From Rhodospirillaceae bacterium (GTDB lineage: Bacteria; Pseudomonadota; Alphaproteobacteria; MPNO01; UBA2964): a DNA stretch of 11,675 nucleotides. Location of the stretch: assembly GCA_002712335.1 (NCBI GenBank), contig PATI01000079.1, positions 1 through 11,675 on the forward strand. The letters run 5' to 3'. Under the pieces are notes generated by a model. The model was not told where the DNA came from. It ran no database searches and worked only from the letters and a program-made list of their open reading frames with translations. Positions within the stretch are counted from its first letter, which is position 1. Every line of letters starts with the position of its first letter. Below are positions 1 through 10,294 of the stretch, in pieces. The translations under genes were made by a program, and so were the position numbers.

Positions 1-20
1 GGGCTTGTAGGGACTGGTAA
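1..20 (+). CDS. 3' end of an upstream gene (partial)
   Basis: Only the last few codons are inside the window, reading Ala-Cys-Arg-Asp-Trp and then a TAA stop at 18-20. The stop shares its last base with the ATG of the next gene, the same TAATG arrangement seen at most later junctions, and this is the main reason to believe that this frame is the coding one. The product cannot be identified. Another frame is also open over these few bases, so the call is tentative. Confidence 0.4.
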
Positions 21-307
21 TGTCTCTTCGCACTGGCAGTTGCGGGTGCGAAGGGGAAGAATGTGTTTGCCACTTTTATCATTACGATTGCGCTTGCCAG
101 TATTGCCCGCATTGCGCTGACGATTGTTTTTGTTTTAACTCAGAGGATGCTATGGAACATCAGGCTAATGCCCAAGAACTATTCGACAACGGCATGTGGA
201 TGTCGTTAAACGAAATGGGCGAACGCCCAGAACTAGATCCTTTCATGGATGACACTCCCATCGAGTGCGGGTTGGAAAACCCTGACGTTTGTGAATCGTG
301 CCAATAA
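20..307 (+). CDS. Small cysteine-rich protein, probably metal-binding, function unknown
   Basis: A 95-residue acidic protein with 13 cysteines, ten of them between residues 8 and 38. Four are C-X-C pairs (8/10, 15/17, 24/26, 36/38), with further Cys at 29 and 32 and His at 18, 21 and 31. A second small group (Cys 83, 91, 94) lies at the C-terminus, after a cysteine-free acidic middle. No signal peptide or membrane segment is visible. This density suggests binding of several zinc ions or a metal cluster, and recalls metallothioneins and compact zinc ribbons, but I recognise no named family. The ATG follows an in-frame TAG at 8-10 and has an AGGGA at 9-13 six bases upstream, so the start is well supported. 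The gene overlaps its left neighbour by one base and lies nine bases before the terminase. A packaging accessory or a host-directed regulator are both possible; nothing in the sequence decides. Confidence 0.8.
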   Translation: MSLRTGSCGCEGEECVCHFYHYDCACQYCPHCADDCFCFNSEDAMEHQANAQELFDNGMWMSLNEMGERPELDPFMDDTPIECGLENPDVCESCQ

Positions 308-316: not shown

Positions 317-2254
317 ATGCCATCAGGCAAAGCCACAACTATAGAGAAATGGGCCGACTACCTAGCGATGCGGCGACAAGGTGTTTCTCTGTACGGAGCA
401 TCAAAACAATGCGGGCTGTCTTACCACGCTTGCCGAGACGCAGAAAGTGGAAAAGCTCCACGTAACTATTTGGCAGCAGAAGAAGCATTAGGGAAAACCA
501 TTCAACCGGAGGTTCCTGCTTATGACATTCTTTCTCCCGAAGCGCAAGCTGCTTACGACAATATCGAAATCTTTGCCAAAAGGTATTTCGGCATTATTTT
601 ACAACCGTGGCAGATTGAAGCAACCGAACGGATCATGGATCTCCTCAACACAGATTACGAGGAATACGCAGTAATTAATGCGCCACCGGGGTCGGGTAAA
701 TCAACTTTCTTTGCTAAGGTATTGCCCGCATGGGCAACCGTGCGTAACCGAGCTATCAGGGGTATGATCGGTTCATCAACGCAACGATTGGCTGAATGGT
801 ATTGTCGCAGGCTGCGCGCCGAGTTAGACCGAGCGCATCCAGTAAAAGCTGAATTGAACGATGTTCGACTCGGTTTAGCGGTTGACGCCGAAGCCACGTT
901 GCAAGATGACTTTGGAATGTTTAAGCCAGACTCGTCAGAGATTTGGCGGTCAGAAGCATTCACAGTGCTGCAACAAGATGATGCTCCTTTGTCACAGAAG
1001 GAGCCAACATGGTCTGCGTTTGGAATGGACTCCGGGTTTCTTGGTGGTCGTTTCGATCTAGTTATATGGGACGACGTTTACGATCCTCGAAAGATGCGGT
1101 CGGCAGAGTCTCGGGAAGATATGCGCCGCTGGTGGGATGAAGTAGCTGAAACTCGGTTAGAGCCGGGAGGGTTACTGATTCTTCAAGGGCAACGCATGTC
1201 AGCAGATGACATTTATAGGTACGCACTGGACAAAGTAGCCCCACCCGATGAAATTGAACTAGAGGAATTTGATCCAGAAGATGCACCAGAAGAATGGCGA
1301 AAATACCATCATGTCAGCTATAAAGCGCACTACGAAGAAAGTTGTGAAGGCGATCACCAACCTGACGCCGCACCGTGGCCCGAGGGGTGTTTACTATACC
1401 CTCGTAGATTACCGTGGCGAAAACTGCGACACATTAAAGCGCAGACTCCAGACCGATTTGAAGTCCTGTATCAGCAATCGGACGTAAACCCGGCAAGCGT
1501 TCTCGTTGACCCATTATGGGTTAGTGGCGGTGTCGGCAAAGACGGTGTTGATTATGTTGGTTGTTGGGACAACGACCGTGACTTGTGGGAAATCCCCACG
1601 GGAGTCACGGGCGATTTATTTGTTGTAGCAACTGCCGACCCGTCACCAGCAAACTTTTGGGCAATTCAATGCTGGGCGTATAACCCAGAAACCGAATTCA
1701 GATATTTGTTGGAATCATACCGACGCAAAATGGATGCCCCTGATTTTCTTGACTGGAATCACACAGAGCAACGCTTTGGTGGAATAGCTGAAGAATGGTG
1801 GCAAATCACAAACGAGTTAGGGCGACCAATCACGCATTGGATCATTGAAGCTAACGCTGCACAAAAATTTATTTTGCAGTACGACCATTTCAAACGGTGG
1901 GCTGCTCTCCGAGGCGTACAACTTGTTCCTCACTACACGCACTCTCGAAACAAAGGCGACCCCAAGTACGGGGTGCAAATGCTTGCGCCATTGTGGCGTG
2001 TCGGGCGGGTACGTTTGCCCGGAAAACAACGCACAGATGCAAGACCACACTCGTTACTTTTAGTGAATGAAGTCACTCGTTGGAACCCAGAAGGCACTGG
2101 GGCTCGGACAGACGACTGTGTTATGGCACAATGGTTCTTAGAACACAATTTAGAAAAACTTTACATACCCCCGACTCAGGGGCCAAAACAGTGGCGTCCC
2201 ACATGGCTGACAGGGCATGATATAGAGGACGGCAAAATGTTCGCGAGGTCGTAG
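317..2254 (+). CDS. terL: Phage terminase large subunit (ATPase and nuclease) with N-terminal HTH-like segment
   Basis: The motor that drives DNA into the procapsid through the portal and cuts the concatemer. At 645 residues it is longer than many family members. The ATPase domain shows a Walker A motif, APPGSGKST, at 122-130, a Walker B at 247-253 (DLVIWDD), and a probable coupling segment around 286-292 (LLILQGQ). The RNase H-like nuclease domain shows the three expected acidic positions: D441 in ATADPSP, E511 in WIIEANAA, and D599/D600 in ARTDDCVMA. Residues 12-45 form a likely helix-turn-helix (GVSLYGASKQCGLSYHACR) ahead of the ATPase, which may do the DNA recognition usually done by a separate small subunit; no such gene is seen here. 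The segment joining the two domains holds C343, H347 and C358. The stop TAG shares its last base with the GTG of the portal gene. The terminase call rests on motifs and is very secure; the HTH role is inference. Confidence 0.96.
   Translation: MPSGKATTIEKWADYLAMRRQGVSLYGASKQCGLSYHACRDAESGKAPRNYLAAEEALGKTIQPEVPAYDILSPEAQAAYDNIEIFAKRYFGIILQPWQIEATERIMDLLNTDYEEYAVINAPPGSGKSTFFAKVLPAWATVRNRAIRGMIGSSTQRLAEWYCRRLRAELDRAHPVKAELNDVRLGLAVDAEATLQDDFGMFKPDSSEIWRSEAFTVLQQDDAPLSQKEPTWSAFGMDSGFLGGRFDLVIWDDVYDPRKMRSAESREDMRRWWDEVAETRLEPGGLLILQGQRMSADDIYRYALDKVAPPDEIELEEFDPEDAPEEWRKYHHVSYKAHYEESCEGDHQPDAAPWPEGCLLYPRRLPWRKLRHIKAQTPDRFEVLYQQSDVNPASVLVDPLWVSGGVGKDGVDYVGCWDNDRDLWEIPTGVTGDLFVVATADPSPANFWAIQCWAYNPETEFRYLLESYRRKMDAPDFLDWNHTEQRFGGIAEEWWQITNELGRPITHWIIEANAAQKFILQYDHFKRWAALRGVQLVPHYTHSRNKGDPKYGVQMLAPLWRVGRVRLPGKQRTDARPHSLLLVNEVTRWNPEGTGARTDDCVMAQWFLEHNLEKLYIPPTQGPKQWRPTWLTGHDIEDGKMFARS
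2243..2248 (+). promoter_or_regulatory. Ribosome binding site for the GTG-started portal gene
   Basis: GCGAGG lies five bases before the GTG at 2254, inside the last codons of the terminase gene. It supports the GTG rather than the first internal ATG, which is 24 codons further on. Confidence 0.6.
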
Positions 2255-4014
2255 TGAAAACCGTTGAGGAAATTATCGCCATATACACGGCAAGATCGCA
2301 AGCCGCTGGCGGCGCAAAATCTAAAATGCGTAATTTGCGAGACTATTACAACGGTGACGTAATTGTACCGTTACCGGAACTTGACTCAGACGAAAAATCT
2401 GCTGTCGCTAATTTACTTGCCCAAGGACTTGACCAAACCGCTATGCGAATAGCGTCAACAACTCCTGATGTTTTTTGTCCTCCAGCAGACCCGTCAAAGA
2501 AACGGTCAAGAGATAACGCCAACATTAGACGTAAAGCAATTTTGGGTTGGTGGCAGCACTCGCGCATGGACTTGCAACTTTCAAAACGAGCAAGACATCT
2601 TATTGGTTACTCGTCAACAGTTACCCAACTTAGATTTAACTCTAAGACAGGTTGCCCTGAATGGCACCTTCGAGATCCATTGACAGCGTACCCAGCAAAA
2701 ATGCTTGGCGTAGACGATATGCGTCCTCGTGATGTTGTGTTTGCTTACGAAAGATCTTTGGGTTGGATTAATTCAATGTACCCAGACGTAGGTCGTTTGT
2801 TCAGAGGCGACAGCAATGTTTCTGACGATCAGCCCATTGAAATCATTGAATATGTCAATGAAGAAGAACAAGTTTTAATTGCACAACGAGGCCCAATTCA
2901 ATCAGGGTTGTTTCCGTCAACGTCAGATGAGCAATCAAATGTGATTGCAGAACTTGAACGAGTGCCAAACATAATGGGACAAACGCCAGTTGTTTGTGCA
3001 GAGCGAATCAACTTAGATCACGCCCAAGGACAATTCGACGGCATTCTTGGCATGTACCAAATGCAAGCCCGGTTAATGGCGCTTGAAGTTATTGCGGTAC
3101 AAAAAGGTGTGTTCCCTGATACTTGGCTTGTAGGCCGAGCCGGAGAAACACCTCAAATTGTAAACCCAGCCGACGGTCTTACTGGCGAAGTTGGTGTTGT
3201 CCGAGGCGGCGACTTGAAAGACATGGCGCTGCAACCGGGTTACATGACTAACCCAGCTATTGACCGTTTAGAAAGAGCGCAACGATTAACTGCTGGCATT
3301 CCATCTGAATTTGGTGGTGAGTCAACTACCAATATTCGTACTGGACGCCGAGGCGACGCTGTGCTTTCTGCTGTAGTGGATTTCCCAATTCAAGAAGCTC
3401 AACGAATTATGGCAAGAGCTTTAGAAGAAGAAAACAAACTTGCAATTGATTTATCAAAAGCGTACGCCAACACTAAAGGCAAATCGTTCTATGTAAATAC
3501 AAAGAACGGCAAAGGCCGAGTTGACTACACACCTAAAGAAAACTTTGAAACAAACGACAACGTGGTCAGCTACTCGCAAGCAGGAGCAGATATCAACAAT
3601 CTTGTCATAGGGGGAGGACAACGAGTTGGTATGGGCACTATGTCGAAACGGTCGTTTATGACAATAGATCCGTTAGTTGACGATCCAGAGTTTGAACACG
3701 ACGCTGTAATAGCAGAACAACTAGAACAAGCTTTGCTTGCTTCAATACAACAACAAGCTTCTGAAGGAATTATCCCTCCAGCGGATCTTGCCCGAATTAT
3801 GGAACTTGTTGCTAATGACCAAATGGAATTAGCTGAAGCAGTAGACACAGTTCAGAAAGAAGCACAAGAGCGACAAGCAACAGAAGTTGATCCAATGTCG
3901 CCAGAAGCGCAACCGGGATTGGCATTACCGGGCATGGGGGCTGAAGCAATGCCAGCACCGGGCGGAGGGCCACAACAAGCACCTCCGTTAGCTGAACTTC
4001 TAGGAGCTTTGTAA
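2254..4014 (+). CDS. Phage portal-like protein
   Basis: A 586-residue protein encoded directly after the terminase, the usual place for the portal, the ring at the capsid vertex through which DNA enters and leaves. The sequence fits: an N-terminal helical region with an Asp-Tyr-Tyr-Asn-Gly element (about 30-34), a mixed central domain, a conserved-looking stretch around 348-399 (GIPSEFGGES, then RTGRRGDAVLSAV, then a long acidic helix), and a C-terminal helical part starting with MSKRSFMTIDPLVDDPEFE at 463-481, typical of portal crown regions. The last 45 or so residues are low-complexity Pro/Gly/Ala/Met-rich and probably disordered. No catalytic motif is visible. The start is GTG, overlapping the terminase stop as TAGTG; the stop TAA overlaps the next ATG. 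The call rests on position, size and general pattern rather than a diagnostic motif. Confidence 0.87.
   Translation: MKTVEEIIAIYTARSQAAGGAKSKMRNLRDYYNGDVIVPLPELDSDEKSAVANLLAQGLDQTAMRIASTTPDVFCPPADPSKKRSRDNANIRRKAILGWWQHSRMDLQLSKRARHLIGYSSTVTQLRFNSKTGCPEWHLRDPLTAYPAKMLGVDDMRPRDVVFAYERSLGWINSMYPDVGRLFRGDSNVSDDQPIEIIEYVNEEEQVLIAQRGPIQSGLFPSTSDEQSNVIAELERVPNIMGQTPVVCAERINLDHAQGQFDGILGMYQMQARLMALEVIAVQKGVFPDTWLVGRAGETPQIVNPADGLTGEVGVVRGGDLKDMALQPGYMTNPAIDRLERAQRLTAGIPSEFGGESTTNIRTGRRGDAVLSAVVDFPIQEAQRIMARALEEENKLAIDLSKAYANTKGKSFYVNTKNGKGRVDYTPKENFETNDNVVSYSQAGADINNLVIGGGQRVGMGTMSKRSFMTIDPLVDDPEFEHDAVIAEQLEQALLASIQQQASEGIIPPADLARIMELVANDQMELAEAVDTVQKEAQERQATEVDPMSPEAQPGLALPGMGAEAMPAPGGGPQQAPPLAELLGAL
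4002..4006 (+). promoter_or_regulatory. Ribosome binding site of the 121-residue gene
   Basis: A consensus AGGAG lies seven bases before the ATG at 4014, within the last codons of the portal gene. It supports independent initiation in addition to coupling through the TAATG overlap. Confidence 0.7.
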
Positions 4015-4379
4015 TGGCTAGAGCAAGACGACCAGAACTTAAAGGACTTCCTTACGGTCAAAAACAAGCAGCAGAAGAATCTATGGCTGCTGTCCCAATG
4101 GCTGACGAAGATTACGACCGACCAGAACCTCCTCCTCGGGCAGTTCCGGGTCAAGCTGGCAGTCCTTTACGGTCTACGTCTTTGCCGGGCGAAAACATTA
4201 TGACGCCCATAAACGGGAATCAGCCTTCAATGCTGCAAAGCGAAGAAATGGATTACAGCAAATACGAACAGTATTTACCAGCCATTGAAGAACTTGCTTC
4301 AGTTAATGGGGCAAGCCGAGACATGATTATGTTTGCCAAACGTCTTCGTCTTGCAATTAACGCAAACAAGAGGACGTAA
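4014..4379 (+). CDS. Small proline-rich protein with helical C-terminus, function unknown
   Basis: A 121-residue protein with two parts. Residues 1-75 are rich in Pro, Arg, Gly and acidic residues (for example RPEPPPRAVPG around 36-46) and look disordered. Residues 78-121 look helical (YSKYEQYLPAIEELASVN, then MIMFAKRLRLAI) and end in a basic tail. It has no cysteine, signal peptide or membrane segment. The gene begins in the portal stop and ends in the start of the giant gene, each time as TAATG, so its synthesis is tied to both. Its place after the portal suggests a small virion or assembly factor, for example a scaffold-like, adaptor or chaperone protein, but no family is recognised. The coding call is strong because of the ribosome binding site and exact junctions. 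Confidence 0.82.
   Translation: MARARRPELKGLPYGQKQAAEESMAAVPMADEDYDRPEPPPRAVPGQAGSPLRSTSLPGENIMTPINGNQPSMLQSEEMDYSKYEQYLPAIEELASVNGASRDMIMFAKRLRLAINANKRT
4368..4374 (+). promoter_or_regulatory. Ribosome binding site of the giant gene
   Basis: AAGAGGA lies four bases before the ATG at 4379, inside the last codons of the preceding gene. The strong match suggests efficient initiation on the 5.9 kb reading frame. Confidence 0.7.
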
Positions 4380-7300
4380 TGGTAGACATCGGCGGAGCCT
4401 TAAATCGCTTAGGAAGAATTGGTGGGGGCTTCATTGATGTAGTAGAAGCTCCAATCCAACTAACAATGGATCTTTTGTTAGCTCCTGTTCGAGAAGACGA
4501 ATACGACGGAATCGCTGGCACTCTTGTAGGCGCTGGCATGGACCGGTTCGGGCAAGCAATCGGTGGAGCATTCGGACCAGATAAAGGTCTTGGTGCAGCG
4601 TTTGGCGCAGTACCCGAAGAATACCGTAAACCTTTTCGTCGGGCAGTTGATCCAGTTCTTGACGTACTCGACTGGACATACGACAACGTAACCGACCGAG
4701 CTTTAGCTACATCCTTTACAATGGCACGAGTCAAAGCGCAACGATTCCTTGACGGTGACATCGGCGGATTACTTGATCTTGACGATTTTAGTTGGGCATG
4801 GGAAGTAGGCAAAAGCCGATCTGCCGGTCAAGCATGGGCAGTGTTACTTAACCCGTGGCTTGACATAACTGACCCCGAACAAGCACACGAATACATTCAC
4901 TCTGAATGGGGCCAACTAATTAGCGGCACTTTTGACGCAATGGCTAACATTTGGCTTGACCCAGCAGACTTATTAGTAGGCAAAGTTGGGTTAGCTTCGC
5001 GTGCTGGCAAACTTGCGTTAGTTGCTAAAGGCGACGACGTAATAGACATGGGGACAGGAGTTCTCAGAGGTCAAAAAGGTGGGAAAGCTGCGTTAGAAGC
5101 TAGACGTGCTGTTTTGACTTACGGCGACGGACGAGTCCCCAAACTATTTGGCAAACTCAATGAAGTCGAAAAAGCTCAGGTTAGGACAAACCGAATCAAC
5201 AACGTTATAGGCGAAGTTGATCCAACTACCGGTATGCGAACAGGTGGGTCAGCAAAATACATTAAGTTTGTTGACGATCTTTACCAAGTGTTAGAAGACA
5301 CTGATGGTGCGTTTGGCACAGGAATGTCTGAAGGTTTCAGAACAACTGGTGTAATGGACAACTCTGATGACGTTGCTGCTATTTCTCGACGAACTGAAGT
5401 TATTAAAAAAGCTTTAGAAAAAGAAATACCGAAACGTCGTGGCGCTGACACAGATCGGTTGGCAGAAAAAGTTGCTTTTGCTAACTCCAGAGAAACATTA
5501 GAAAATGTTTTGCTTATGGAACTGTGGGGACACGCTCCAACATGGGATGCAGCTTCTAAAGCGTATCGAACATATAAAGCATCTCTTGGAGAAGAAACAG
5601 CATACGGAGCTTCCCGACGAGCAGCGCAAACTGCTCGCACACAAGCAGACGAACTAAAAACTCAACTAAATGGACCTACGGAAGATTTAGGTTGGGAAAC
5701 AATTGGAACTTCTAAAACAGGTGACGTTTACGTTGTCCAAGCAAATGACCCCCCAACGTTGCTTGTTGGAGGAAAACGCAAAGCTGTCAACGTAGGAGAC
5801 AGAGTATTTCTTGATCCGGGCGTTCAATGGACAAACCAACGTAAAATTGCAACAGCAAAACTTCGCTTAGTTGACCGCATTGAAAAACTAACTAAAGAAG
5901 CTGTCAAAAACGAACGAGACATGGTGCGTCGTGGAGCAAGAGCTTCTGCTGAAGCAGCCGACGCTGGGTTCCTTGTTGCAGCTATGGCTGACTTTAATTT
6001 CCGTGCCCGACGAGGAATAATAGGCGAAGATGGTTCTTTGCTTGAATCAGGATTCCGTCTTGATCCGTATAAACAAGACGAGCTTTTCAATGGGCAAGCA
6101 GTCGTTGAAGGCGTAGGCGACGTAAATCAAATGTCGTTAGTGGCGCTCATTGAACAAGGCGCTCGTGAAATGGTGGTAGCGCAACAAAAAGCATTACCAG
6201 AAATGGTTGCCACTGGTCCAGACGTTACTTATCGCATGGGCGGAGTGGATGCTCTTGACCGATTTGTTCTTCCTAAAATGGATAGACAAATCCAAACTTT
6301 AATGAAAGCTGGGCAACCCGGTAGAGCCGAAACAGTAATGACTGCTTTTGGTAAACCAGTTCGTTTGTTCAAAGAGTTTCTGCCTCAACGGTGGATTAAC
6401 TTCGCTGAAGATGCTTCAGCAACAGATCAGTTTGACAGGATGTTGCGTCAAATTACGCGCCTCCACGAAAAACTCCCCGGCGATCTTGATGCTCTTTTAA
6501 CTGAAGATCAACGTGCAGCTTTGCGTTTACAGTTCCAAACATCTGACAAAGTTGGCCGAGCCGCTTTATTTGATCGTACCGCTATGAGAGCGTACGAAGA
6601 AATTCTTAAACGGGCAGGCATTACAGACGAACAAGCTCAACTAGTTATGGAGCGTATAAAGACGACGCAGAACGCTTTGACGGAAGTTAAAGATAAAACC
6701 ACTAACTTCAAAACTAAAGACGGCGATGTAGTAATTGTTAGTGCCCGAGATTATGAAAATGGTTCTGTTGTCGGTTCAATCTTGCCGTATACAAAACAAC
6801 AAATGGCAAACGTAGCTTTAATGCCACGATTTGATTTGCTTGTCAATGAAATTAACAAATACGCCCCCGGCATGAGATCTTCCACACGGCAAACAGTGTC
6901 AGCCACTATTGATACTGCCGACAAACTTATGGCTCAAATAATGAAACATTGGCGAGCTTCAGCTTTGTTGCGTCCTGCGTGGGCAATGCGAGTTCTTCCA
7001 GATGAACTACTGCGAGCAATGTCAGTAGTCGGGCTTCTTGGTGTTGCTGGGGGTGTTGCTAGAGGAATGTCTGACATGCGTGTCGGTTTAATGGATCACA
7101 TGAAAGGCATTGATTCTTTACCGGGCACTCTTGAACAAATGGCTGAACATCCTTTGGTAAAGCCGTACATTGAAAGTTTGGGTAGAGAAGCAACAGCGTT
7201 AGAAATTGTTGCAGAAGCTAACCGTAAGTTAGATCAAAAAGAAATCAACAAAATGATGACTCGCTCTATTGTGAGCGAAGACAAAACCCGCAGGTTTGGC

Positions 7301-10294
7301 AGAGCAAAGCGTACTTTAAGACCAACAATGGTTGGGCTTGGAGCGTCAATTCTTTTGGGGCCGATGGGTGGCGCTGTTAGCGCAGGTCTTTATACCCGTA
7401 TGGGGTACAAGACAGCGCAACGACTTGCCCAAAAACAATTTGTTGGTGCTTACGGATCAGACATGCTTCGTTTAGCAGACAATTTGTTAGCTGAAGCAGC
7501 AGAAGCTAGTCCTGATGTAGCAAGACAGTTACGTCAAGCTAGCGATGACATTCTTACCCAATATAAAAATATTGACAAAGTTCGAAATGAACTTGGGTTG
7601 AACTTGACTGACAAAGTTGATGAAGCTTTGACGTTGCAAGATCGTGTTGCAACTCAATTGCATGATCTAAAAGCTGGTCATATCCGAGTCGGGAACAGAG
7701 CAATTGATTCAGCTTTTGGGACTAATGGTGCGTTGCGAGAAATAAACACTAGAGCAGCTTCAGCTTCCCGAGCTACAGCAAATCTTATGGGCTTTACCCA
7801 CAAATCAATGGAAACGAAATGGAATGAGTTAGAAGAAGCGTCAACAATGGCTGGGTCTAATCCGGGTCTTTGGGACAAATTCGTAAATCAACAATTAAGT
7901 GGTTTCGGCACAGGACGCACTATTCGAACTGCTGAAGAAAAAGCAATGGTGGCGGAAAGACTTGGCATTGAAGTTGATGATGTAACAAGTGAAGTTGTTG
8001 TCGCTCATAATGAATGGACTCGCCAAATTTGGGAACCAGCGTCAGAAAGCCCCGGAATGTTTGGGCCTCCAGCACGCACAGAAGATCAAATTGTTGACGA
8101 TTTGCTTGATTGGATTAACTCGCGAGAAGCGGCTCCTCTTAGAGCCAATCTTCCGTGGATGGCAAACAGAGAAAACATTGTCACAATGCGAGGAACAATT
8201 AACAAGTTGTTGCCAGATCAACCTGAACTTGTTGATTTGCGTAGATCAATAGGAGAAGGAAACCAAGTTAGTTACCAGCGAGATGTTGCTCGAAGGCTAG
8301 ACAGTTTAGATCCTGAACGTAGAGCCGAAATCGAAGACTTAATGGAGAAAATCACAGAGAAAGACGTTAGAGCAGTTAATGGCACTCTTTGGGAAACTGT
8401 TTCTGATTTCTTTGGGTTTCAATCGAAAAGCCTCAGCCAATTTGTTGAAAGAGCGTTTGCTTCAATAGGTGGATTGCCAACTGACAATCTTGTTCGTAAC
8501 CCGTTTTTCCGTGCTCGATATGAAGTTGCCTTTAGGCGTCGGGTTCAATCACAAATTGATTTAGAAACCGGTGATTTACGAATGACCGGCGAACAAATCA
8601 ATGCAATGCAAAATGCTGCCCGGACACAAGCCCTCAAAGAAACCCGAGAACTGCTTTACGATCTAGCTGAAAACACTAGGTTCGGAGAAATCGTAGCTAA
8701 CTTCATGCCGTTCTACGGTGCTTGGCAAGAAGTAATTAGTCGTTGGGTAGGCATAACAGTCGAAAATCCAGCGCACACTTTGCGAGTGTTGCGAGCATAC
8801 CGTCGTGCAGGATCAGGCGAAGATGGCATTGTTAGCACTTACAAAGACGACGACGACAACGAATACTGGGTATTTACTCCACCAGAAAGTCTGCGAGATG
8901 GATTGCTCGGCAAGGTTTTCAATGGAGGAGCCATTCAAGATTTAGCTGGAGTTCCATTGAGATTCTCTAAATCTTCAGCAAACATGCTTTCCCAAGGGCT
9001 TCCCGGTTTCGGGCCGCTTGTTGGTATTCCAGTCAATGAAATGTTAATGAAACGCCCTGACCTTGAAGATGCAATGAAAATTGTTCTCCCGTTTGGGGTT
9101 CAATCAGGCGAAAGCGCTATTTGGCGTGGCTTTGGAGCAGTATCTCCAGCGTGGGCAAGACGGTTGAAGTCTTACTTGTCTGAAGATGAGTCTTATCTTT
9201 CAATGCAGCAAATGATTTTGCGAGACACATTGCAACAAATGGAGTTACGCAATGATGAATTTGATTTCAATAACCCTGAAGATGTCAATGAACTATTGAA
9301 AGAAATCGAAGAAAAAGCTACAAACATTTGGATTGTCCGAGGAGTTGCAGCGTTAGTTGCTCCTATTCAACCGCTGCCTAGCTCTCCATTTCAAGCACAA
9401 ATAGACAAGTACCGCAAACTTCAACTAGCTGACCCTGAGTCTTTGATTAATGGGAAAGGTGAAATCAGTTCTGCTGACGAAATCTTCCTCGAAGAAGAAG
9501 GCGACGAGTTCTTCTATCTAACTGCCCGGTTTACTCGCAACAACACAGGTATTCCAGCGACAATAGAAGGATACGAGTCAAGCAAACGACACGCTGATCT
9601 TATAGCTGCACATCCACGATACGGACGTTTAATCATTGGAGCAGAAGCAGGAGGAAGTTCAGAGTTCTCTAACGCTGCTTACCGGATTCAACAAACAACA
9701 GAAGTTGCTCCGGGTTCAGACATTATGTTCCGTGAACGTTTAGGTTTGAAAGAAACTGCTGAACAAGTTGAGATAGCTAACGGTTGGCAGGAATACCGTA
9801 ACTTTATGGACATGGTAGCTATTGAAGTTTCAAAAGCTGGTTGCATTTCAATCAATGACCCAGCATGTAAATGGCTTCGTGAACTTAAAGGCGATTACAT
9901 ATTCGAGTTAGGCCAAAGTAATAAGCTTTGGTTTGAGGATTACAGGTTGCGTGACTCGGCAGTAAACCAAGCCGAAAACATGACTGTGTTCCGCAAACTT
10001 ATTGCTGACCCAGTAATTGGTCAACGTAGCGACATCCAGAAACTTGCAGAGTATGTCAGAACTCGGGACGCATTTGCTGAAGAACTGTTTGTTCTAGACA
10101 GAGAAGGCGGTTCGTCTTCGTTGTTCTCTCGTTCTAATGAATGGCTGCTTTCAATGTGGGATGATTACAAAGAAGAATTTTTATTAGCGCCGGTAACAGC
10201 AAATCTGCGACAATTTGTTGAGTTTGATTCTCTTGCTATTGAGTCATGGCCGATAGAACTACAACGACTACAACGTGAAGTGGTGCAATCATAA
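4379..10294 (+). CDS. Giant (1971-residue) phage protein, probable internal virion / DNA-ejection protein
   Basis: One uninterrupted frame of 1971 residues, mostly predicted-helix-like, with no enzyme domain I can name. Visible elements in order: a Gly-rich amphipathic N-terminus (1-80); an IWLDPADLLVG element at 191-201; a long charged helical region (about 240-430); a small beta-rich patch at 449-482 (DVYVVQ, then VGDRVFLDPG); a second helical region; a Gly-rich hydrophobic stretch at 882-897 (SVVGLLGVAGGVARGM) preceded by RPAWAMRVLPDE; a second at 983-1005 after a very basic segment; a helix rich in Arg and Ala leading to NFMPFYGAWQE (1441-1451); LPGFGPLVGIP at 1541-1551; and an acidic C-terminal part containing the only two cysteines (1822, 1830). 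Large helical proteins with a Pro-Phe-aromatic element near a long helix occur among phage structural proteins, including ejection proteins carried inside the capsid. That role is inference from size, hydrophobic segments, low cysteine and location. A minor head or tail structural protein is the main alternative. It overlaps both neighbours by one base. Confidence 0.93.
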   Translation: MVDIGGALNRLGRIGGGFIDVVEAPIQLTMDLLLAPVREDEYDGIAGTLVGAGMDRFGQAIGGAFGPDKGLGAAFGAVPEEYRKPFRRAVDPVLDVLDWTYDNVTDRALATSFTMARVKAQRFLDGDIGGLLDLDDFSWAWEVGKSRSAGQAWAVLLNPWLDITDPEQAHEYIHSEWGQLISGTFDAMANIWLDPADLLVGKVGLASRAGKLALVAKGDDVIDMGTGVLRGQKGGKAALEARRAVLTYGDGRVPKLFGKLNEVEKAQVRTNRINNVIGEVDPTTGMRTGGSAKYIKFVDDLYQVLEDTDGAFGTGMSEGFRTTGVMDNSDDVAAISRRTEVIKKALEKEIPKRRGADTDRLAEKVAFANSRETLENVLLMELWGHAPTWDAASKAYRTYKASLGEETAYGASRRAAQTARTQADELKTQLNGPTEDLGWETIGTSKTGDVYVVQANDPPTLLVGGKRKAVNVGDRVFLDPGVQWTNQRKIATAKLRLVDRIEKLTKEAVKNERDMVRRGARASAEAADAGFLVAAMADFNFRARRGIIGEDGSLLESGFRLDPYKQDELFNGQAVVEGVGDVNQMSLVALIEQGAREMVVAQQKALPEMVATGPDVTYRMGGVDALDRFVLPKMDRQIQTLMKAGQPGRAETVMTAFGKPVRLFKEFLPQRWINFAEDASATDQFDRMLRQITRLHEKLPGDLDALLTEDQRAALRLQFQTSDKVGRAALFDRTAMRAYEEILKRAGITDEQAQLVMERIKTTQNALTEVKDKTTNFKTKDGDVVIVSARDYENGSVVGSILPYTKQQMANVALMPRFDLLVNEINKYAPGMRSSTRQTVSATIDTADKLMAQIMKHWRASALLRPAWAMRVLPDELLRAMSVVGLLGVAGGVARGMSDMRVGLMDHMKGIDSLPGTLEQMAEHPLVKPYIESLGREATALEIVAEANRKLDQKEINKMMTRSIVSEDKTRRFGRAKRTLRPTMVGLGASILLGPMGGAVSAGLYTRMGYKTAQRLAQKQFVGAYGSDMLRLADNLLAEAAEASPDVARQLRQASDDILTQYKNIDKVRNELGLNLTDKVDEALTLQDRVATQLHDLKAGHIRVGNRAIDSAFGTNGALREINTRAASASRATANLMGFTHKSMETKWNELEEASTMAGSNPGLWDKFVNQQLSGFGTGRTIRTAEEKAMVAERLGIEVDDVTSEVVVAHNEWTRQIWEPASESPGMFGPPARTEDQIVDDLLDWINSREAAPLRANLPWMANRENIVTMRGTINKLLPDQPELVDLRRSIGEGNQVSYQRDVARRLDSLDPERRAEIEDLMEKITEKDVRAVNGTLWETVSDFFGFQSKSLSQFVERAFASIGGLPTDNLVRNPFFRARYEVAFRRRVQSQIDLETGDLRMTGEQINAMQNAARTQALKETRELLYDLAENTRFGEIVANFMPFYGAWQEVISRWVGITVENPAHTLRVLRAYRRAGSGEDGIVSTYKDDDDNEYWVFTPPESLRDGLLGKVFNGGAIQDLAGVPLRFSKSSANMLSQGLPGFGPLVGIPVNEMLMKRPDLEDAMKIVLPFGVQSGESAIWRGFGAVSPAWARRLKSYLSEDESYLSMQQMILRDTLQQMELRNDEFDFNNPEDVNELLKEIEEKATNIWIVRGVAALVAPIQPLPSSPFQAQIDKYRKLQLADPESLINGKGEISSADEIFLEEEGDEFFYLTARFTRNNTGIPATIEGYESSKRHADLIAAHPRYGRLIIGAEAGGSSEFSNAAYRIQQTTEVAPGSDIMFRERLGLKETAEQVEIANGWQEYRNFMDMVAIEVSKAGCISINDPACKWLRELKGDYIFELGQSNKLWFEDYRLRDSAVNQAENMTVFRKLIADPVIGQRSDIQKLAEYVRTRDAFAEELFVLDREGGSSSLFSRSNEWLLSMWDDYKEEFLLAPVTANLRQFVEFDSLAIESWPIELQRLQREVVQS

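What the first reader, a model, noticed from the sequence alone, without database searches (positions are those of the whole stretch)
4379..10294. Giant 1971-residue protein of no recognised family two genes after the portal
It takes up half the window and sits where many phages place head-morphogenesis genes. No domain is recognisable by eye, but it has ordered features: an N-terminal Gly-rich part, two hydrophobic Gly-rich segments, a Pro-Phe-Tyr helix element and a conserved-looking LPGFGP motif. A role as an ejection protein stored in the capsid, or as a minor structural protein, would be new if its relatives are uncharacterised.
Basis: partly seen in the sequence, partly recalled or inferred. 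Interest (0 to 1): 0.7.

Follow-up and report, generated by a model that had tools for sequence, protein, structure and literature searches.

The report
Giant cysteine-free phage ejection protein
The huge unnamed gene of this virus of bacteria probably makes a protein that is packed inside the virus head and shot into the bacterium with the DNA, and some relatives of it carry a swappable enzyme in the middle, which suggests a delivery vehicle not yet described.

Summary
The 1,971-residue ORF is real, at the stated place. No Pfam, NCBIfam or PDB sequence match; only PHROG 10618 (function unknown). It belongs to a large unnamed family (162 proteins fetched, 156 of them over 1,300 aa) whose hits among named phages are Streptomyces podoviruses (Abafar: 16-nm tail). 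The operon TerL-portal-small-GIANT-small-hydrolase-type-...-N4-type capsid is kept: portal upstream in 60 of 60 loci with enough flank. A tape measure does not fit a short tail; no match to N4 vRNAP was found.

Best clue, cysteine: 11 in 265,120 family residues; 154 of 162 members have none. In four Streptomyces podoviruses seven picked operon proteins (about 3,470 aa) have one cysteine each, in the NlpC/P60 VDCSG motif. Most tabulated ejection proteins of T7, P22, N4, phiKMV and SP6 also lack it (exceptions: T7 gp14, gp6.7; epsilon15). I read the giant as the largest ejection protein.

In one related clade the linker before the conserved C-terminus carries an ADP-ribosyltransferase cassette in 23 of 58 loci, absent from close sisters (13 changes on the tree); R, STS and ExE motifs are kept in 28 of 29 copies. 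So the family looks like an ejected chassis with a cargo slot. The window's own protein has no such domain. Virion presence is untested.

The parts
317..2254 (+). terminase large subunit (645 aa); 1.24% Cys, used as contrast
   Evidence: PHROG 38 E 2.5e-49; weak T7-type TerL NF033889, 38.1 bits, below its cut-off of 150; Cys
2254..4014 (+). portal protein (586 aa)
   Evidence: PHROG 104 E 9e-7; a portal homologue lies upstream of the giant in 60 of 60 loci with enough flank
4014..4379 (+). 121-aa Cys-free gene between portal and giant; L004 copy similar to L009, L011 and L013 genes; the L011 copy is similar to Abafar gp6
   Evidence: BLASTP; Cys
4379..10294 (+). giant protein, 1,971 aa, proposed largest ejection protein
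4736..5023 (+). conserved block N (residues 120-215)
   Evidence: HMM from A4 found in 166 of 166 family proteins over 1,300 aa at a lenient E<=1
6836..7093 (+). conserved block M (residues 820-905), LLRPAWAMRVLPDELLR and a hydrophobic segment
   Evidence: HMM in 165 of 166 at E<=1; hydropathy
7094..8185 (+). variable stretch M-C1 (residues 906-1269); the interval in which some relatives carry the ADP-ribosyltransferase cassette; no recognised domain in the window protein
   Evidence: lengths and cassette position; no ART or d2 match in the window protein; AF2 mostly under pLDDT 50 at 960-1158 but confident helices from about 1160
8186..8818 (+). conserved block C1 (residues 1270-1480), with PFY at 8708-8716
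8966..10291 (+). conserved block C2 (residues 1530-1971), nearly all helical; LPGFGP at 8999-9016
   Evidence: pLDDT blocks 68-96 from about residue 1600, most over 85
9842..9868 (+). the only two cysteines (C1822, C1830), also present in P0001, P0002, P0003 and L004
10294..11082 (+). 262-aa Cys-free gene after the giant
   Evidence: a gene of 266-375 aa stands at this place in L004, L009, L011, L013
11082..11675 (+). start of the next gene (666 aa in L004), runs off the window; distant relative of the NlpC/P60 protein of Abafar outside the hydrolase domain
   Evidence: L004 copy matches Abafar's 435-aa protein at residues 189-357, E 2e-5

Best explanation
The giant is the largest member of an ejection (internal virion) protein set of a short-tailed phage with an N4-type capsid. 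It is made from the structural operon, stored nearly Cys-free inside the head, and leaves through portal and tail in a largely unfolded or beads-on-a-string state ahead of or with the DNA, together with neighbouring small and hydrolase-type proteins, to build the route through the cell envelope. Its conserved N, M and C1/C2 blocks form the common chassis; the stretch between M and C1 is a cargo slot that in some relatives holds an ADP-ribosyltransferase delivered into the host. Shown: gene, family, fixed operon, podovirus morphology of one cultured relative, Cys exclusion, cassette presence/absence. Inferred: packaging in the head, ejection, channel building, that the window's phage has a short tail, and that the slot works as cargo delivery; what the window's own M-C1 stretch does is unknown.
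For: Abafar, a cultured relative, is a podovirus with a 16 (+/- 2) nm tail (passages of PMC11536984). Gene order is kept: portal upstream in 60 of 60, NlpC/SLT/666-type gene downstream in 58 of 59, capsid downstream in 35 of 35 loci with enough flank. Capsid of L004 is N4-gp56 family, 121.6 bits over a cut-off of 60. Abafar's genes after its 271-aa gene carry NlpC/P60 (E 3.5e-29) and SLT (E 5e-6) domains. Cys: 11 in 265,120 residues, 154 of 162 proteins with none; 2 in 133,233 residues of 67 ORFs from loci L017-L088 (L086/L087 encode P0039, already counted). In L004 six consecutive genes have 2 Cys in 3,631 aa against 22 in 2,884 aa of ten other genes that I picked (Poisson P 4e-10). In four Streptomyces podoviruses seven picked operon proteins hold one Cys, in VDCSG of the NlpC/P60 protein. 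No Cys in T7 gp15 and gp16, P22 gp7, gp20 and gp16, N4 gp50-52, phiKMV gp35-37, SP6 gp35-37. Published reasoning for N4-like vRNAP: disulphides would hinder passage through the tail (PMC3915230; PMC2784036 says it could be important for entry; passages). Cassette.
Against: No proteomics or solved structure of any member was found. Cys loss is not specific: T7, P22, phiKMV and SP6 scaffolds, P22 gp26, phiKMV tail tubular A, N4 capsid and gp57, and lambda's tape measure are Cys-free, while epsilon15 gp13-gp17 have 1-2 Cys each, T7 gp14 has 1, T7 gp6.7 (noted as injected in its record) has 1, and T7 gp13 (annotated internal virion protein) has 3. Just after the portal, three of the four Streptomyces phages have a 51-52-aa gene with 4 Cys, so the Cys-free run does not start at the portal. 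No detectable homology to T7 gp15/gp16-like proteins or N4 vRNAP. No fold match in PDB. In the window's phage the 666- and 448-aa neighbours have no recognised hydrolase domain, and the ART cassette is not in the window's protein.
Confidence: 0.77

Rival explanations
1. It is a virion RNA polymerase like N4 gp50, a Cys-free giant in an N4-type capsid phage, diverged beyond recognition.
For: Same capsid family, giant size, Cys-free, ejected in N4 (passages of PMC12633501).
Against: No hhalign match to N4 vRNAP (probability 0.1%); loosely written polymerase motifs (recalled, not from a call) do not occur as a conserved set in eight members scanned; no polymerase stands out among fold-search hits, weak evidence as parts were low confidence.
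Confidence: 0.05
2. It is a tail or head-completion component (internal plug, nozzle or minor structural protein) that stays with the particle.
For: Two downstream genes in FlowerPower, Manuel and Romero are named minor tail proteins; position close to the portal.
Against: Nozzle-type tail proteins in control phages have 4-7 Cys (T7 gp12 5, phiKMV gp34 4, SP6 gp34 5, epsilon15 gp12 6, P22 gp10 7; the nozzle role is recalled); the giant is predicted mainly helical; an enzyme cassette that comes and goes inside it is easier to explain in a delivered protein.
Confidence: 0.13
3. It is a tape measure protein of a long-tailed phage.
For: Long, helical, nearly Cys-free like lambda gpH; BFVD hits at E 0.06 and worse include tape measures.
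Against: Podovirus morphology of the relative Abafar; those fold hits are not significant; no tail-tube or tail-terminator family reached E 0.1 among the ten L004 genes scanned.
Confidence: 0.03
4. The ADP-ribosyltransferase cassette of the relatives is not a delivered activity but a selfish or structural insertion, so the cargo-slot part of the reading is wrong.
For: It is absent from 35 of 58 close loci and from the window's protein; its activity is untested.
Against: R, STS and ExE motifs are kept in 28 of 29 copies (the other is cut by a contig end) across 23 distinct sequences; PF03496 scores 35.9-45.8 bits against a cut-off of 23.4 in L022, L037 and L063.
Confidence: 0.15

Closest known systems
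Podovirus ejection proteins (T7 gp14-gp15-gp16; P22 gp7, gp20, gp16; phiKMV gp35-37; SP6 gp35-37)
   Same: Consecutive structural-operon genes, one very large member in T7, phiKMV and SP6, long Cys-free chains, wall-hydrolase domains in several of the sets.
   Different: No detectable sequence or profile homology; the genes precede the capsid gene here; most family members in hand have 1,300-2,642 residues against 609-1,337 for gp16-like proteins; named hosts are Streptomyces, while a review (PMC8954989, section 4) speaks of podoviruses of Gram-negative hosts, listing Mycobacteria among them, and says phi29-like phages lack these genes.
Schitoviridae virion RNA polymerase (N4 gp50)
   Same: Giant, Cys-free, ejected, same capsid family.
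   Different: No homology or conserved polymerase motif set detected.
Polyvalent proteins / head-packaged ADP-ribosyltransferase fusions (Iyer et al. 2017; T4 Alt)
   Same: Large multidomain phage proteins in virion-gene contexts, with ART the commonest protein-modifying domain (passages of PMC5512222 and PMC9503650).
   Different: No large-polyvalent-protein (LPD) model appeared in Pfam scans of 21 members (that Pfam holds such models is recalled); here one conserved chassis keeps its operon place and an ART with R, STS and ExE motifs toggles as a cassette, while the polyvalent ART prototype is described with H, Y and D.
Streptomyces podovirus giants (e.g. Abafar_00008, FlowerPower gp9)
   Same: Homologues: 25-27% identity over up to about 650 residues, same operon place; PHROG 10618 presumably holds them (not tested).
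   Different: 1,635-1,648 aa in four cases; shorter inter-block stretches than the window protein; function unknown.

Membership tests
PHROG 10618 / Beephvirinae giant family | profile or BLAST match and same gene position after portal, before the capsid gene | tested here: met
Podovirus ejection protein | short-tailed virion | tested here: inconclusive
   shown for the relative Abafar only; the window's phage is known only as sequence
Podovirus ejection protein | operon of consecutive internal-protein genes with a wall-hydrolase domain in the set | tested here: inconclusive
   hydrolase domains present in Abafar; in the window's phage (L004) distant homologues lack a recognised hydrolase domain
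Podovirus ejection protein | Cys-free long chain (supporting, not formally defining) | tested here: met
   the window protein itself has 2 Cys in 1,971 residues
Podovirus ejection protein | present in the virion head and released into the cell | not testable with these tools
   no data in the listings
T7 gp16 family | detectable sequence or profile homology | tested here: not met
   hhalign against T7 gp16 and a T7/SP6/phiKMV/P22 profile: no significant hit; very distant kinship is not excluded
N4 vRNAP | polymerase motifs and homology | tested here: not met
   motifs recalled
Tape measure protein | long tail | tested here: inconclusive
   relative Abafar has a 16-nm tail; window's virion unseen
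ADP-ribosyltransferase-bearing (polyvalent) protein | ART domain in the polypeptide | tested here: not met
   none in the window protein; met in 27 of 67 ORFs of related loci and in P0032/P0033
Any family of solved fold | structural match of the predicted model | tested here: inconclusive
   searches with two half-models gave no convincing match

The most novel reading that the evidence does not exclude
A previously undescribed ejectosome of short-tailed phages, including phages of Gram-positive actinobacteria, whose giant subunit is a delivery chassis with a fixed internal slot: closely related phages gain, lose or swap an effector cassette (an ADP-ribosyltransferase in one clade) at the same place while the protein around it stays 91-99% identical, so that sister phages inject different payloads with their DNA.
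Probability: 0.45. Interest if true: 0.85.

Novelty: new variant of a known kind. Interest (0 to 1): 0.68.

Why it matters
Ejection proteins are described mainly from phages of Gram-negative hosts. A large, unnamed family found in Streptomyces podoviruses and many environmental contigs could show how short-tailed phages cross a thick Gram-positive wall. The near-perfect exclusion of cysteine, broken in four Streptomyces phages only by a presumed catalytic residue, offers a sequence-only clue to ejected proteins, although it is not exclusive to them and has exceptions. The ART cassette toggling between close relatives suggests fast turnover of injected effectors, which makes host targets and defences directly testable.
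Full report
1. The observation. The ORF at 4379-10294 encodes 1,971 residues and is the second gene after the portal. It is real: near relatives share the whole length (P0001-P0003 at 96, 87 and 76%), and IMG/VR contig L004 has the same gene with 20 of 5,916 bases and 4 of 1,971 residues different. Pfam and NCBIfam give nothing for it, nor does the PDB by sequence. PHROG 10618, unknown function, matches (E 3.4e-37, best stretch 1603-1935).

2. Family. tblastn against 50,697 phage records finds 29 records, all Streptomyces phages, 25-27% identical, mostly over about residues 1280-1940, all annotated hypothetical protein. Of the five that I opened, four are Beephvirinae by their record and Abafar by its paper. 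Protein searches returned 10, 33 and 191 relatives, of the last 120 listed; the first two scored only the roughly 8,000 candidates sharing most words. That leaves 162 distinct proteins in hand, 156 over 1,300 aa. Four conserved blocks recur: N (120-215), M (820-905), C1 (1270-1480), C2 (1530-1971), found in 166, 165, 166 and 166 of 166 proteins over 1,300 aa (these include proteins translated from loci, not all independent of the P set), with models built from 48-50 of them and a lenient E limit of 1. Length differences sit between the blocks: N-M mean 406 (sd 72), M-C1 mean 237 (sd 120), C1 to end mean 711 (sd 27) in 165 proteins. The window protein has 615 and 368 in the two gaps.

3. Context. 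In L004 the order is terL, portal, 121 aa, giant, 266 aa, 666 aa, 448 aa, 159 aa, major capsid. The capsid scores 121.6 bits to the N4-gp56 equivalog (cut-off 60). A comparable order holds in Streptomyces podoviruses, with an endolysin gene between terL and portal, several small genes between portal and giant, and tRNA genes before a gene of about 163 aa and the capsid gene. Over the IMG/VR loci with enough flank, a portal lies upstream in 60 of 60, an NlpC/SLT/666-type gene downstream in 58 of 59 (L056 missing) and capsid in 35 of 35. In Abafar the two proteins after the 271-aa one begin with NlpC/P60 (E 3.5e-29) and SLT transglycosylase (E 5e-6) domains and are 45% identical over about 297 further residues. 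In the window's phage the 666-aa protein matches the NlpC/P60 protein outside the hydrolase part and the 448-aa protein matches Abafar's 386-aa protein; neither has a recognised hydrolase domain.

4. Morphology. Abafar has a podoviral morphotype, tail 16 (+/- 2) nm, capsid about 60 nm (passages of PMC11536984). That argues against a tape measure for the family; the window's own virion is unseen.

5. Cysteine. The 162 proteins hold 11 cysteines in 265,120 residues; 154 have none. 67 ORFs from the 72 loci L017-L088 hold 2 in 133,233 (L086/L087 repeat P0039). In L004 the six consecutive genes from the 121-aa to the 159-aa gene have 2 Cys in 3,631 aa, ten other picked genes 22 in 2,884 (Poisson P 4e-10); without the giant 0 in 1,660 against 12.7 expected. 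In Abafar, FlowerPower, Manuel and Romero seven picked proteins (the 139-aa type, giant, the 271-aa type, NlpC, SLT, the 386-aa type and the 163-aa type; 3,449-3,477 aa) hold exactly one cysteine, always in VDCSG or IDCSG of the NlpC/P60 protein, by family knowledge its catalytic residue. The small genes that I had skipped there: the one just before the giant has none, but a 51-52-aa gene right after the portal has 4 in three phages, and one 67-aa gene of Romero has 1. Controls, 69 genes that I picked from seven phages: of 37 proteins over 500 aa, 10 have no cysteine: T7 gp15 and gp16, P22 gp16, N4 gp50 and gp51, phiKMV gp36 and gp37, SP6 gp36 and gp37, and lambda gpH. The first nine are known or annotated ejection or internal proteins, the tenth a tape measure. 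Against the rule: epsilon15 gp13-gp17 have 2, 1, 2, 1 and 1; T7 gp14 has 1, gp6.7 has 1 and gp13 has 3; several scaffolds, P22 gp26, phiKMV tail tubular A, N4's capsid and gp57 are Cys-free though not known as ejected. Two papers on N4-like phages link the missing cysteines of vRNAP to passage through the tail or entry into the cell (passages of PMC3915230 and PMC2784036).

6. Structure. AlphaFold2 of residues 960-1971 with 50 sequences: mean pLDDT 71.7; 960-1158 mostly under 50, about 1160-1325 mostly over 80, then mixed, and mostly over 85 from about 1600; nearly all helical. Residues 1-1000: 59.6. Foldseek against PDB: none at E 0.001. Against BFVD: 8 hits at E 0.001 or better, uncharacterised or unnamed, one of them Manuel's family member. 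No claim of a new fold follows, as the models are long and partly poor.

7. The slot. P0033 carries PF03496 (ADP-ribosyltransferase exoenzyme) at 853-970 with 26.4 bits, cut-off 23.4; P0032 scores 23.3, just under. A PDB sequence search links P0033 to the arginine ADP-ribosyltransferase Vis (E 2.7e-4). A viral-contig scan with P0033 fetched 69 loci. A profile of six copies finds the domain in 27 of the 67 ORFs and in P0032 and P0033; L022, L037 and L063 score 35.9, 41.6 and 45.8 bits to PF03496, L048 nothing. R, STS and ExE motifs are present in 28 of 29; the other copy is cut by the contig end. Of 58 loci spanning M to C1, 23 have it; M-C1 lengths are 912-945 in 22 of 23 with (one 764) and 715-730 in 34 of 35 without (one 575). 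On a quick tree of the C-terminal part (58 labelled rows, of which 24 with ART) presence needs 13 changes, at least 9 forced by well supported branches; shuffled labels average about 17, and 12 and 6 of 500 shuffles come as low, so the trait is somewhat clustered yet has changed many times (long outgroup branches are flagged there; recombination would give the same picture). Six sister pairs with and without the cassette are 91-99% identical on both sides, the break lying at about residue 787-812 in each. All copies are Cys-free. A second domain (L048 961-1125) is in 57 of 58 of these loci and resembles small proteins of Arthrobacter and Microbacterium phages, 30-38% identical. The window's protein has neither.

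8. Mechanism. I commit to: packed in the head, ejected as the largest ejection protein with its neighbours; conserved blocks do packaging, ejection and envelope passage; the M-C1 stretch is where payload is carried. Shown are family, operon, Cys exclusion and cassette toggling. Inferred are packaging, ejection and payload delivery. For the window's protein the payload, if any, is unknown.

9. What is known. A review (PMC8954989, section 4 read) describes ejection proteins from podoviruses of Gram-negative hosts, though it lists Mycobacteria, and says phi29-like phages lack them. Polyvalent proteins with ARTs are a known class in virion-gene contexts (passages of PMC5512222 and PMC9503650); PMC9503650 counts ARTs in only 3% of sipho- and podoviruses. 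The searches for Beephvirinae, its genera, Streptomyces podovirus virion proteins and ejection proteins with actinophages (listings, partly capped) showed no title describing this family; only the library of open papers was searched.

Noticed in passing
window 20-307: A 95-aa ORF before terL has 13 cysteines, probably a metal-binding small protein, in sharp contrast to the nearly Cys-free block downstream.
   Followed up: no
window 9842-9868: The window clade has two cysteines eight residues apart (C1822, C1830) in the conserved C-terminal block; a possible clade-specific disulphide or metal pair.
   Followed up: partly
L048 residues 961-1125 of the giant; L093:2552-2887; L094:1998-2336: A second domain in the M-C1 stretch of the P0033 clade is shared with free-standing proteins of about 111 aa in Arthrobacter and Microbacterium phages; function unknown.
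   Followed up: partly
L005:12218-14826: The NlpC/P60 and SLT proteins of Abafar are 45% identical over 297 residues behind different hydrolase heads: a head swap on a common tail.
   Followed up: no
L007 (JXY1) 11162-18184: In the JXY1 record the giant is annotated as two ORFs, and so, by position, is the NlpC-type gene; sequencing error or real breaks. Intact copies exist in relatives.
   Followed up: no
L086, L087: The relative P0039 (1,997 aa), named in one source from a Gammaproteobacteria bin, lies in the same operon; it may widen the host range of this phage group, but a bin label is weak evidence.
   Followed up: no
window 6992-7060 and 7328-7384: The only stretches of the giant over the hydropathy cut used lie in and after block M (residues 872-894 and 984-1002); they could touch a membrane, yet P0006, P0007, P0008, Abafar and FlowerPower have none over that cut.
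   Followed up: partly
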